From Aurantiochytrium sp. KH105 (Eukaryota; Sar; Bigyra; Thraustochytrida; Thraustochytriidae): DNA of 64,000 nt. Position numbers and translations under genes: made by a program. Shown here piece by piece: positions 3,783-7,589 of this stretch. The stretch is taken from assembly GCA_003116975.1 (NCBI GenBank), contig BGKB01000004.1, forward strand, positions 434,001 through 498,000, written 5' to 3'. How positions within the stretch are numbered: the first letter of the stretch is position 1; each line of letters opens with the position of its first letter. Under the pieces are notes generated by a model. That model saw nothing but the letters and a program-made list of their open reading frames with translations. It did no database searches and was not told the DNA's origin.

Positions 3783-6700
3783 ATGGGCGGCGGCGGCGAG
3801 GAGTACGCGCGGCCGAGCGAGGCGCTGGAGCGCGTGCTGGACATCGAGGAGGAGCCGCACCTGATCGAGGACCCGAGCGCGAGATGGAGCGTGGTGGCGT
3901 CGTATCGCGCGCTGGCGTTTTCCGTCGCCGACATCTCGCGCCCGCTCGTGGAGACCGGCGGGCTCTGCTTCGACCCGAAGCTGCGCACGCCGCACAAAGC
4001 GCTCTTCGCGCACGCCTTTACGCTGCGGCGGCTGTTCTCCGGAGACGGGCCCCACGCGGCAGGTGGAGGAGGACGAGCGCGCGACCAAGGCGCGCCACTT
4101 GGCCTCGAGGAAGACGCCGAGCACGACGGCGCTAACGACGTTGCGGTGGAGGGGCTCCCCGCTGACGCCGTTGGCTTTCGCTATTTCCGGTGGCGCCGCG
4201 ACGGCGGCAAACTCGCCTTTGCGGCCAAGGTGCCAGACGGCGATGGCTTTGCGCTGCGTTTGTTCGTCGTCGACCTTGACAGTTACCTCGCCCAGCAAAA
4301 CCCTCCCAAATCAATTACAGCGCGCCCTCTCTTAGAGAACCGGACGCTGACCGCCATCACGAACAGCCCCTTTCGTTTTCTTGGGGATGGCGCCTCCCTT
4401 TTGTGCATGTGCGCCCCGGAGAATCAGGGTCCTCCACCCGCAGAAGAGACGGTTCCTCGAGGACCAAACATTAAGGAAAATCTGACCACCAAGAATGCCC
4501 CCGCGCGCACGTACCAACGCCTCATCTCATCGAAGCGTGATGAAGAGCTCTTTGAGTACTACACCAAGGCAGAAGTAGTTCTTGTTCAGTTTGGTGGAAA
4601 CAACACGACATTTGAGACTGTGCTGGAACCCACGCGCGGGGGCGCAATGATTCGCTCAATCTCTCTTTCGCCGGACAAGCGCCACTTTCTCGTCAGCCTC
4701 ACCACCAAGCCGTTTTCATGGACTCTGCCGTACTACAAATTTGCGAAAAAGATCGAGGTATGGACGCTCTCGCGCCCGCTCAGCTTCCACTCGGCCATGT
4801 CCTCGCACGAGGCAGCGCTCGGCGACCACCCCCAATACCCAAAGCGTGCTTCGGTCTCTGCCATTAGCTTTGAGGCTGAAGACAGCGCGTACAACCCCGT
4901 GGATTTTACGCACCAAGCTGTCCTCGACAACAACAACAAAGTCAAAGAGAATGGCTGGGCTGATCCGGATCTTGATGAAATGGATCTTGCAGAAATAGAA
5001 CAGCGCATGACGTATCATGGCAAGATTTTCTTGCAGGACGGCAGACCGCGCAATCCTGTGGGACGCACAGGCATGGTGGGCCGCGGGCTCTTGGGCAAAT
5101 GGGGCCCGAACCACGCCGCTGACTCGATCGTAACGCGATACTGCCCTAAGCGTCCCGATGTGCTGCAAATGGTTGCCATACAACGCCAGGATACAGGTCA
5201 TTGGGCGCTTCCGGGTGGAATGGTGGATCCGGGCGAATCCGTCCCTGTGGCGATGAAGCGAGAATTTATTGAGGAAGCCGGAAATGTAGATATGACGCAT
5301 GAAAAGCTTGCAGCGCATCGCAAAAAGCTGGATCAGCTCTTTGAGCAAGGCACAGAGATCTACTGCGGCTACGTAGATGATCCACGAAACACAGATAACG
5401 CCTGGATGGAGTCAGCCTTTATTCACTTTCACTGTGACAAGGAATTAGGCGACAATATCCCTCTGGCCGCTGGCGATGACGCACAGTCTGTGCGTTGGCT
5501 CGACGTGGACGAAAGCGACGAGGCGTTTGCGAAGCTCTATGCCAGTCATAAGTCTATTGTCAAAATGGCAGCAGGCATGCTATCTGGCGACGAGGCGCTT
5601 CGGCCATTCGCCGTTCAAGTTGCAGAAATTCGTACGGTGGTTGATCTTCCGGATCAAGAGGGGATGGTGATTTCTTTTGACGCACGACCCCAGGGACCGC
5701 GAGGCATTATGTGGCATTGGCAAAAGGCCGCGACGCTCGTGTTTGACTTTGCCCTTGACGAGGGAAATCCCAAGCTCGAGGCAAAGGAGCGTGATGCCGT
5801 CTTTGAGTTGTCAGGCCCGTTTCGGCTCGCAGATTATGTGAAGGATCCGATGCAGAGCCCCGACGCGCGTCTCGTTGTCAAGTTGGACTATCGCATCTCC
5901 GGCATTAGCTGGTCAAAGGCTTCGGCGGGCCTTTGTTTCGTGACGGAGTCGTGGCGCAAGACGCGTCAGACGCGCAAGTGGATCTTGAGGGAGAAAAGAG
6001 CTGTCACTGTTGCTGCTGCTGCTGCTGCTGCTGCTGATACTGATGATGGTGCTATTGCTTCTACCACTTTGAGTTCTTCAACGTGCGACTCTGGCATTTA
6101 CGAACCCAAGGTACTCATGCACGAGCGTTCCTCGGACGATGCCTATGCTTCTACGGGCAGCATTCAGGTCGCTGCAGACGCCTTTGGAGTCTACCATTTG
6201 CAGTACCAGACCATCAAAAACGAGCTTGCTTTTGATGTTGTAGGTGCAGGCGCCAGTCCCGTGGGAAGCCGACCCTTTATCGATAGACTCTTCCTCGATC
6301 CCAAGGGGGATCTCTCGCAGAGGAGGACAGAGCATATATGGCGGAGCCCCCTCGGCCCTGAAGCTGACGCTTCGCTCGTGGACACAAGCCGCGAACCCGG
6401 TGGCACGGTACCCACGCAGCGACAAGCGTTGTACGAGTATCCTGCGGAACTGTTTCCTGGGGGAGAGTGGATGCTTCTACGACGCGAGTCAAACGACCAA
6501 CCCCCTGATTTTTTTTGGCGGCAGCTCTCAACGGGCAAGGAATGGCGCATCACGCGACATGCTCACCCACAACCAGCCCTCGTGGGCGTTCGCAAGGAGC
6601 TGGTCAAGTATAAGCGTGATGACGGCCTTGATTTGAATGGAGATCTCTACTTGCCTCCAGGCTATGACCCCAAAAGGGATGGGCCACGGCCATGCCTTTT

Positions 6701-7589
6701 GTGGGCGTACCCGCGCGAGTTCAAGTCGAGCAAGGCGGCAGGTCAGGTGAAAACATCCCCCCACCGCTTTACGCGCACGTCGTGGTCACGACCCGTTACT
6801 TGGGTAGTAAAGGACTGGGTCGTGCTCGGTTTCGCAAGCCCAATTGTGGCAGAAGGCCCGGACGCCGAGCCTAATGATACATTTGTGGAGCAGCTGCGAG
6901 CCAATGCGCAGGCTGCTGTTCGGTTGCTGTTGGATCGAGGACTGGGCAAACCTGGCGGCTTTGCGGTCGGGGGTCACTCTTATGGAGCTTTCATGACGGC
7001 GCATCTCCTTGCGCACACGGACCTCTTTAGCGCTGGCATTGCGCGCTCGGGTGCATACTTGCGTGCGCTGACCCCGTTCGGCTTCCAAGCTGAGGAACGT
7101 ACGTATTGGGATGCGCCCGAGACGTATGCCAAGCTGTCGCCATTTTCGCACGCGCCGAAAATTGCCCAGGGCACGGGCAAGCTCTTGCTCGTGCACGGAA
7201 TTGCGGACGAGAATCCGGGTACGTTTCCGATCCAATCGGAACGTTTGTACGATGCACTCAAGGGCCATGGCGCAATCACCAAGCTTGTTCTCCTTCCTCA
7301 CGAAGGTCATGGGTACACTGCGCGCGAGTCCATCCTCCATACAATTTTTGAGCAGGAAACCTGGCTCGACAAGTTTGTGCTACCGGCGTTTGATGACAAT
7401 GCAGAGATTCCTTCCCAAGTATGTGCGTCGCTCCTTGGGCAGAGCATGGATTTGGATGTGGACGCAGGGATGTCTTCTCTTGTTGACGCCAACATGAAAT
7501 CTCAAACTCGCGTTCGCATGCTGGGGGGTATGGCAGCAGCAACCGTGCTTGTAATTGTCGCCATGCGTGCGCTCTCGAGTCGACTCTAA
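3783..7589 (+). CDS. S9-family glutamyl endopeptidase with an inserted NUDT9-like Nudix domain and a C-terminal membrane anchor
   Basis: 1,268 aa from the ATG at 3783 (frame open to 3318, so an upstream start is possible). Residues about 20-360 and 605-935 resemble the beta-propeller of plant-type glutamyl endopeptidase. Residues about 940-1205 are the alpha/beta-hydrolase domain: Ser1066 in GGHSYGAF, Asp1142 in [10 protein letters not shown], His1176 in HEGHGY, a complete S9 triad. Between the propeller halves, residues about 363-600 form an entire NUDT9-type ADP-ribose pyrophosphatase: [26 protein letters not shown], a Nudix box starting near residue 478 with the G-x5-E-x7-RE-x2-EE-x-G pattern kept (RE, EE present), then [15 protein letters not shown]. 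Both enzymes look intact. A poly-Ala run (about 743-754, GCT repeats) sits in the second propeller part. Residues about 1246-1265 are a hydrophobic helix ending near the C-terminus, suggesting a tail anchor. Predicted roles: cleavage after Glu and hydrolysis of ADP-ribose to AMP plus ribose-5-phosphate. Location and joint purpose are unknown. Confidence 0.9.
   Translation: [1268 protein letters not shown]

What the first reader, a model, noticed from the sequence alone, without database searches (positions are those of the whole stretch)
3783..7589. NUDT9-type ADP-ribose pyrophosphatase inserted inside the propeller of an S9 glutamyl endopeptidase
The peptidase propeller is interrupted after KKIEVWT by about 240 residues that carry a complete NUDT9 set of motifs, then the propeller resumes ([10 protein letters not shown]...) at the point expected from plant-type glutamyl endopeptidase. 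Both catalytic sets look intact: S1066/D1142/H1176, and RE and EE in the Nudix box. NUDT9 fusions are known in the TRPM2 channel, but I know of no peptidase-Nudix insertion. It suggests ADP-ribose level and proteolysis are linked, for instance by ADP-ribose binding next to the substrate gate.
Basis: partly seen in the sequence, partly recalled or inferred. Interest (0 to 1): 0.88.

Follow-up and report, generated by a model that had tools for sequence, protein, structure and literature searches.

The report
ADP-ribose hydrolase nested inside a peptidase
A eukaryotic genome carries a gene in which a complete enzyme that breaks down ADP-ribose is nested inside one loop of a glutamate-specific protein-cutting enzyme, apparently with both active sites intact, which may tie ADP-ribose turnover physically to protein breakdown.

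Summary
Window 3783-7589 (+) is one open frame of 1268 codons: an S9D (CGEP-type) glutamyl endopeptidase whose residues 330-615 are an insert holding a full-length NUDT9-type ADP-ribose pyrophosphatase. In 48 aligned bacterial S9D proteins that point holds 7 or 8 residues against 289 here, so the insert replaces the turn of a propeller hairpin. A second, collinear copy (98% protein identity, another contig) has the same junctions. Between the copies the insert shows purifying selection (17 synonymous, 6 nonsynonymous changes). Triad S1066/D1142/H1176, Nudix box REFIEE and D566 are intact. The insert groups with human NUDT9 and animal/choanoflagellate TRPM2, not bacterial NUDT9. No other NUDT9 was found in the genome, so the host's NUDT9 may have moved into the peptidase. 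Most likely it is a bifunctional enzyme. The 'gate' idea is weakly supported: the turn should face away from the active site. Plant Nudix-DPP III is a looser precedent. There are no transcript or assay data, and eukaryotic protein databases could not be searched.

The parts
3783..7589 (+). single-frame coding sequence, 1268 aa plus stop
   Evidence: start supported by comparison with the second copy
3804..4769 (+). S9D N-terminal segment and propeller part 1 (residues 8-329), ending in strand KKIEVWTL
   Evidence: BLAST matches to bacterial S9D beginning at residues 1-8 in most rows; CGEP alignment; strand 322-329 in model
4770..5627 (+). insert, residues 330-615, where CGEP has 4 residues
4827..5588 (+). 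NUDT9-type ADP-ribose pyrophosphatase domain (about residues 349-602)
   Evidence: NUDT9 1q33 E 1.6e-58; alignment A2; model pLDDT 84.6, best fold match NUDT9 1qvj E 2.0e-26
5214..5276 (+). Nudix motif, GGMVDPGE...REFIEE (residues 478-498)
   Evidence: critical residues per PMC6461439 passages
5478..5480 (+). D566, aligned with catalytic base D1460 of choanoflagellate TRPM2
   Evidence: alignment; PMC11479946 passage
5628..6572 (+). propeller part 2 (residues 616-930), resuming with strand IRTVVDLPD
5994..6101 (+). low-complexity Ala/Asp/Ser tract (residues 738-773), variable between the two copies
6573..7391 (+). S9D catalytic domain (about residues 931-1203)
6978..6980 (+). catalytic S1066 in [10 protein letters not shown]
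7206..7208 (+). catalytic D1142
7308..7310 (+). catalytic H1176
7518..7586 (+). C-terminal hydrophobic stretch (about 1246-1261) ending RALSSRL: possible tail anchor; end SRL resembles a PTS1 signal (recalled consensus)
   Evidence: hydropathy; residues 1239-1268 identical in both copies; fetched bacterial S9D frames have at most 24 residues after the matched region, against 69 here

Best explanation
The gene encodes one bifunctional polypeptide. An S9D glutamyl endopeptidase (propeller plus alpha/beta-hydrolase) carries, in the turn of one hairpin of its propeller, a complete and probably catalytically competent NUDT9 that hydrolyses ADP-ribose to AMP and ribose 5-phosphate. Shown here: one open frame, the insertion point, intact motifs of both enzymes, constraint on both between two copies, the same fusion on two contigs, grouping of the insert with eukaryotic NUDT9/TRPM2, and no other NUDT9 found in the genome. 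Inferred: an ancestral stand-alone NUDT9 was relocated into the peptidase gene and its original copy lost; the two enzymes work independently on one protein, giving co-expression and shared location; the protein is cytosolic or membrane-anchored by its C-terminal hydrophobic segment. Coupling between the two sites is possible but not shown.
For: Open frame and Pfam hits. CGEP aligned in pieces around the insert, with NUDT9 filling it. 48 of 48 aligned bacterial S9D rows have 7 (45 rows) or 8 (3 rows) residues where the window protein has 289. By BLAST on all 55 extracted S9D rows the gap is 4 residues in 48, 5 in 2, 2 in 2, an overlap in 1, and undetermined in 2. Strands 322-329 and 613-622 flank the insert in a model with pLDDT mostly 80-96 outside it. 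The insert modelled alone (pLDDT 84.6) best matches NUDT9 1qvj, E 2.0e-26. Second copy on contig C187, 98% identical, no stops, collinear downstream over window 8000-11999 at 92%. dN/dS 0.093 for the insert, 0.121 for the whole protein. NUDT9 tree: insert with HsNUDT9, NvTRPM2 and SrTRPM2 at 98/97. The other genome matches to the NUDT9 part (7 of 9) are weak and short, best E 7.6e-4. REFIEE fits REUXEE, required for activity (PMC6461439 passages). S, D, H and hinge Y976/P977 are each identical in 50 of 50 long rows, i.e. 48 bacterial rows and the two copies.
Against: No transcript, protein or activity data. One in-frame GT-AG pair (4758-5594) could in principle remove the Nudix part, though its acceptor has no clear pyrimidine tract and the product would lose strand residues VWT. 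In the full-length model the Nudix part itself has low confidence; only four NUDT9 rows were in that alignment. The genome search scores only the best candidates (10), so a diverged or intron-rich second NUDT9 could be missed. The NUDT9 tree has only three eukaryotic references. One genome (two copies) is known to carry the fusion; eukaryotic protein databases could not be searched.
Confidence: 0.7

Rival explanations
1. ADP-ribose-gated peptidase: ADP-ribose binding (with or without hydrolysis) at the NUDT9 insert changes cap opening or closing and so controls proteolysis, as NUDT9-H acts in TRPM2.
For: The domain is embedded in a moving cap: in CGEP the cap hinges by about 40 degrees, and the authors conclude that only the closed form is active (PMC12871690). 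Human TRPM2 uses its NUDT9-H domain as a ligand module (abstracts; passages).
Against: The insertion turn is inferred to be on the propeller face away from the catalytic domain and hinge loop (strand order; the CGEP dimerization loop, which touches the partner's catalytic domain, is a second-to-third strand loop by the same count, i.e. on the opposite face). The ends of the insert have low confidence, as flexible linkers would. In Nematostella TRPM2, abolishing hydrolysis did not change channel currents.
Confidence: 0.15
2. Coupled clearance of ADP-ribosylated proteins: the peptidase cuts at Glu while the NUDT9 part trims or destroys ADP-ribose carried by or released from the same substrates (Glu is an ADP-ribosylation site).
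For: A review lists NUDT9 among ADP-ribose erasers acting on phosphodiester bonds and describes Asp/Glu ADP-ribosylation (PMC6414514 passages); CGEP is reported strictly specific for cleavage after Glu (PMC12871690 introduction).
Against: No substrate data; a modified Glu may not fit the Glu pocket; the link is speculation.
Confidence: 0.1
3. The Nudix segment is a retained or alternatively spliced intron-like insert, so most peptidase lacks it.
For: One in-frame GT-AG pair exists, 4758-5594; donor GAG/GTATGG is plausible.
Against: The insert is a complete coding domain with third-position changes dominating (5, 2, 16 at codon positions 1, 2, 3) and dN/dS 0.093. No other NUDT9 was found in the genome.
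Confidence: 0.04
4. Assembly artefact or chimeric join.
For: Only one genome assembly is available, and both copies come from it.
Against: A second contig carries the same junctions at 98% protein identity with 84.5 synonymous changes (counted by path averaging) between the copies; the downstream flank is collinear.
Confidence: 0.01

Closest known systems
Chloroplast glutamyl endopeptidase CGEP (Arabidopsis AT2G47390), peptidase subfamily S9D
   Same: [10 protein letters not shown] motif, Ser-Asp-His triad, hinge-loop Tyr-Pro, propeller plus hydrolase order
   Different: CGEP has 4 residues where this protein has 286; here no N-terminal extension is seen before the region shared with bacterial S9D, and the C-terminus is hydrophobic; the two do not group together in a weakly resolved tree
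NUDT9 (human mitochondrial ADP-ribose pyrophosphatase; PDB 1q33/1qvj)
   Same: catalytic region, Nudix box, fold; grouping in the tree
   Different: NUDT9 is a free enzyme; here it is nested within another protein
TRPM2 chanzyme (Salpingoeca, Nematostella)
   Same: NUDT9 domain fused to an unrelated protein and still enzymatically active (passages); groups with the insert in the tree
   Different: C-terminal fusion to an ion channel, not an insertion into a peptidase propeller
Plant Nudix hydrolase 3 / dipeptidyl peptidase III (Karacic et al. 2017; paper not held; seen cited in PMC5389931 and described in PMC9820243 and PMC9079729 passages)
   Same: a Nudix domain and a peptidase on one chain, described as dual activity
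   Different: peptidase of family M49, Nudix at the N-terminus modelled on another Nudix structure (2FKB); end-to-end, not nested

Membership tests
Peptidase S9D | active-site motif [10 protein letters not shown] (PMC12871690 introduction) | tested here: met
   residues 1063-1072, exact
Peptidase S9D | Ser-Asp-His triad in that order | tested here: met
   S1066, D1142, H1176, each identical in 50 of 50 long rows
Peptidase S9D | overall similarity to CGEP along propeller and catalytic domain | tested here: met
   10eq E 1.2e-134 in three pieces
Peptidase S9D | cleavage after glutamate | not testable with these tools
   needs assay
NUDT9 ADP-ribose pyrophosphatase | Nudix box REUXEE with metal-binding glutamates | tested here: met
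   REFIEE 493-498
NUDT9 ADP-ribose pyrophosphatase | NUDT9-specific similarity and fold beyond the Nudix core | tested here: met
   1q33 34-274 aligned; 1qvj top fold match over 290 columns, rmsd 3.0
NUDT9 ADP-ribose pyrophosphatase | groups with NUDT9/TRPM2 NUDT9-H in a tree | tested here: met
   98/97 support, 30 rows, three eukaryotic references
NUDT9 ADP-ribose pyrophosphatase | hydrolyses ADP-ribose | not testable with these tools
   needs assay
TRPM2 channel | melastatin region and channel domain | tested here: not met
   Pfam finds only Peptidase_S9 and NUDIX at E up to 1
Nudix-DPP III (M49) dual enzyme | M49 peptidase domain | tested here: not met
   no M49 match in the Pfam scan at E up to 1; peptidase is S9

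The most novel reading that the evidence does not exclude
A ligand-regulated peptidase: the cell's NUDT9 has been built into the moving cap of a glutamyl endopeptidase so that ADP-ribose (a product of NAD+ consumption and of ADP-ribosylation turnover) directly tunes intracellular proteolysis, the peptidase counterpart of the TRPM2 chanzyme.
Probability: 0.15. Interest if true: 0.9.

Novelty: new variant of a known kind. Interest (0 to 1): 0.62.

Why it matters
I know of no other S9 peptidase whose propeller carries a second, fully preserved enzyme (recall, plus the paper searches), and here the inserted enzyme appears to be the organism's only NUDT9. That makes a link between NAD+/ADP-ribose metabolism and peptide degradation directly testable with one protein. 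It also adds a case, beside TRPM2, of NUDT9 being absorbed into an unrelated eukaryotic protein.

Tried and rejected
The genome-contig scan with the whole protein used six peptide patterns and returned 21 loci, all matching the NUDT9 part only; the two viral-contig scans returned the same 5 contigs, again NUDT9 part only. All these collections are prokaryotic or viral. BLAST of the fetched loci (about 1.5-4 kb flanks) found no frame with both parts.

Plant-type origin of the peptidase: not supported. In the tree of 55 rows (53 of 55 bacterial rows, 2 dropped for shortness, plus window protein and CGEP) the window protein is a long branch (1.74) with no supported partner, and CGEP pairs with a bacterial row (91/85). 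The NUDT9 tree has 30 rows (26 of 29 bacterial or viral rows, 3 dropped for shortness, plus window protein and three eukaryotic references); in it the eukaryotic group lies among bacterial rows.

NCBIfam lists 10 families for the protein, all below their cut-offs.

Splicing out of the insert: of 10 GT-AG pairs in the ranges tested, 1 keeps the frame; other splice types were not tested.

Full-length alignment for folding: MAFFT misplaced the peptidase rows on the Nudix part when many NUDT9 rows were present, and fragments failed too. After these trials I used 48 of 55 S9D rows and 4 of 29 NUDT9 rows, chosen because peptidase and NUDT9 rows then fell on their own parts. This probably explains the low confidence of the Nudix part in the full model. 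The insert was folded separately with 26 NUDT9 rows.

Foldseek and the second look list S9 peptidases of other subfamilies for the full model; CGEP entries did not appear among the 50 rows shown by each.

One search compared the second copy in the wrong orientation and was discarded; replace it. One search stopped with an error after printing part of its results.

Distances between insert and active site were not measured: no coordinates were available.
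Full report
What is there. The frame 3783-7589 on the + strand codes for 1268 residues without a stop. Pfam finds two domains above cut-off, NUDIX at 463-591 and Peptidase_S9 at 1043-1197. Against solved structures the best matches are Arabidopsis chloroplast glutamyl endopeptidase CGEP (10eq, E 1.2e-134, three pieces) and then NUDT9 (1q33, E 2.9e-57, residues 363-597). The CGEP pieces run 122-329, 616-736 and 774-1212 in the query; in the CGEP chain the first two are separated by 4 residues only. 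The insert is therefore residues 330-615, window 4770-5627.

The insert is a whole NUDT9. Aligned with 26 bacterial and viral NUDT9-like rows it keeps the Nudix box and the [21 protein letters not shown] and [12 protein letters not shown] blocks. Modelled alone with that alignment it reaches pLDDT 84.6, with 162 of 292 residues at 90 or more. Its best fold matches are NUDT9 (1qvj, E 2.0e-26, 41% identity) and the TRPM2 chanzyme. The box REFIEE fits REUXEE, which is needed for catalysis; human TRPM2, with RILRQE, is inactive (PMC6461439, passages). D566 aligns with D1460, named as catalytic base in choanoflagellate TRPM2 (PMC11479946, passage; alignment).

The peptidase is intact. [10 protein letters not shown], the S9D motif given in PMC12871690 (a preprint; introduction and results read), is at 1063-1072. 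S1066, D1142 and H1176, and Y976 and P977 (partners of the hinge-loop Y691 and P692), are identical in all 50 long rows of the alignment, the two copies included.

It is unlikely to be an assembly or annotation accident. The genome (76 Mb, 367 contigs) holds a second copy on contig C187, 98% identical in protein, open throughout, and collinear at 92% over window stretch 8000-11999: an allele or a homeolog of the same assembly. Between copies there are 84.5 synonymous and 34.5 nonsynonymous changes, dN/dS 0.121. For the insert it is 17 and 6, dN/dS 0.093; for its flanks 0.143 (121-329) and 0.03 (616-737). The low-complexity tract 738-773 (2.0) and the C-tail 1213-1268 (0.34, 3 and 3 changes) are not distinguishable from neutral. 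In copy 2 the frame upstream of the matching ATG holds stops and no later ATG, which supports the start. Of 10 candidate GT-AG pairs around the insert, one keeps the frame (4758-5594); it lacks a clear pyrimidine tract and would remove strand residues.

Where it came from. In a tree of 30 rows the insert joins human NUDT9, Nematostella TRPM2 and choanoflagellate TRPM2 (98/97), the only eukaryotic references included, apart from bacterial and viral rows. Searching the genome with the NUDT9 part alone at E up to 1 gives 9 matches: the two fusion copies, and 7 weak ones to short stretches (best E 7.6e-4), 6 of which cover the Nudix motif. Searching with the peptidase domain gives the two copies and two weak S9 matches, E 4.0e-4. 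So, within the limits of an exon-by-exon search that scores only the best candidates, the genome has no other NUDT9 and no insert-free S9D. I infer that a host NUDT9 sequence was moved into the peptidase gene and the free copy was lost. The peptidase part is a long branch with no supported partner.

How it most likely works. Shown: architecture, motifs, constraint. Inferred: both reactions take place on one chain. In a four-stranded blade the turn between strands three and four lies on the face opposite to the chain's entry and exit, which join the catalytic domain (general propeller topology, recalled). The CGEP residues K294-N298, which contact the partner's catalytic domain, correspond to query 229-233 (numbering offset counted by me from the alignment), between strands 205-210 and 263-270: by my count a second-to-third strand loop on the other face, as this argument expects. 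The NUDT9 domain should therefore stand off the far side of the cap, away from hinge loop and active site. This argues against steric gating, though not against an effect on cap movement. A C-terminal hydrophobic stretch (1246-1261) followed by RALSSRL, identical in both copies, suggests a tail anchor or a peroxisomal signal; both are guesses from recalled rules. The match to bacterial S9D begins at residues 1-8 in most rows, so no transit peptide is apparent.

What is known. No held paper contains both 'glutamyl endopeptidase' and 'nudix', nor 'prolyl oligopeptidase' with 'nudix' and 'domain fusion', nor 'thraustochytrid' with 'glutamyl endopeptidase'. Broader searches (78 papers, 20 listed; 7 papers) showed no such fusion in titles or abstract starts. 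The library holds open-licence papers only. A Nudix-peptidase dual enzyme of other families is known in plants (Nudix hydrolase 3 / DPP III: PMC9079729 and PMC9820243 passages; original paper not held). NUDT9 domains elsewhere: TRPM2, and the bacterial and viral fusions noted below.

Limits. There are no transcripts and no assays. The organism is not identified here.

Noticed in passing
L031:1-6177 (Candidatus Omnitrophus magneticus, JYNY01000401; also L063): One open frame of at least 2059 aa matches NAPRTase, isochorismatase, NAPRTase N-terminal, NUDIX (NUDT9-type), carbon-nitrogen hydrolase and NAD synthase domains: it looks like an NAD-salvage mega-fusion containing a NUDT9.
   Followed up: partly
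L036:547-4611 and L037:673-5244 (viral contigs IMGVR_UViG_3300033551_000196, 3300038441_000654): Long frames combine a VG15 match, ADP-ribosyltransferase exoenzyme-like matches and a NUDT9-type NUDIX domain.
   Followed up: partly
L062:1375-2931 (Deltaproteobacteria MAG): NUDT9-type NUDIX followed by a cytidylyltransferase-like domain in one frame, reminiscent of NMN adenylyltransferase/ADP-ribose pyrophosphatase fusions.
   Followed up: no
L028:1315-3741 (Myxococcales MAG): NUDT9-type NUDIX downstream of a below-cut-off inosine-uridine nucleoside hydrolase match in one 809-aa frame.
   Followed up: no
window 7518-7589: C-terminal hydrophobic segment and terminal SRL of the fusion protein, identical in both copies; fetched bacterial S9D frames end within 24 residues of the matched region.
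   Followed up: partly
window 5994-6101: Ala/Asp/Ser-rich tract in the propeller, with a 2-codon indel and dN/dS about 2 between the copies.
   Followed up: no
window 20-730 and 1591-3084: Two neighbouring frames share similar membrane-protein-like C-terminal sequence (by eye), possibly tandem paralogues.
   Followed up: no
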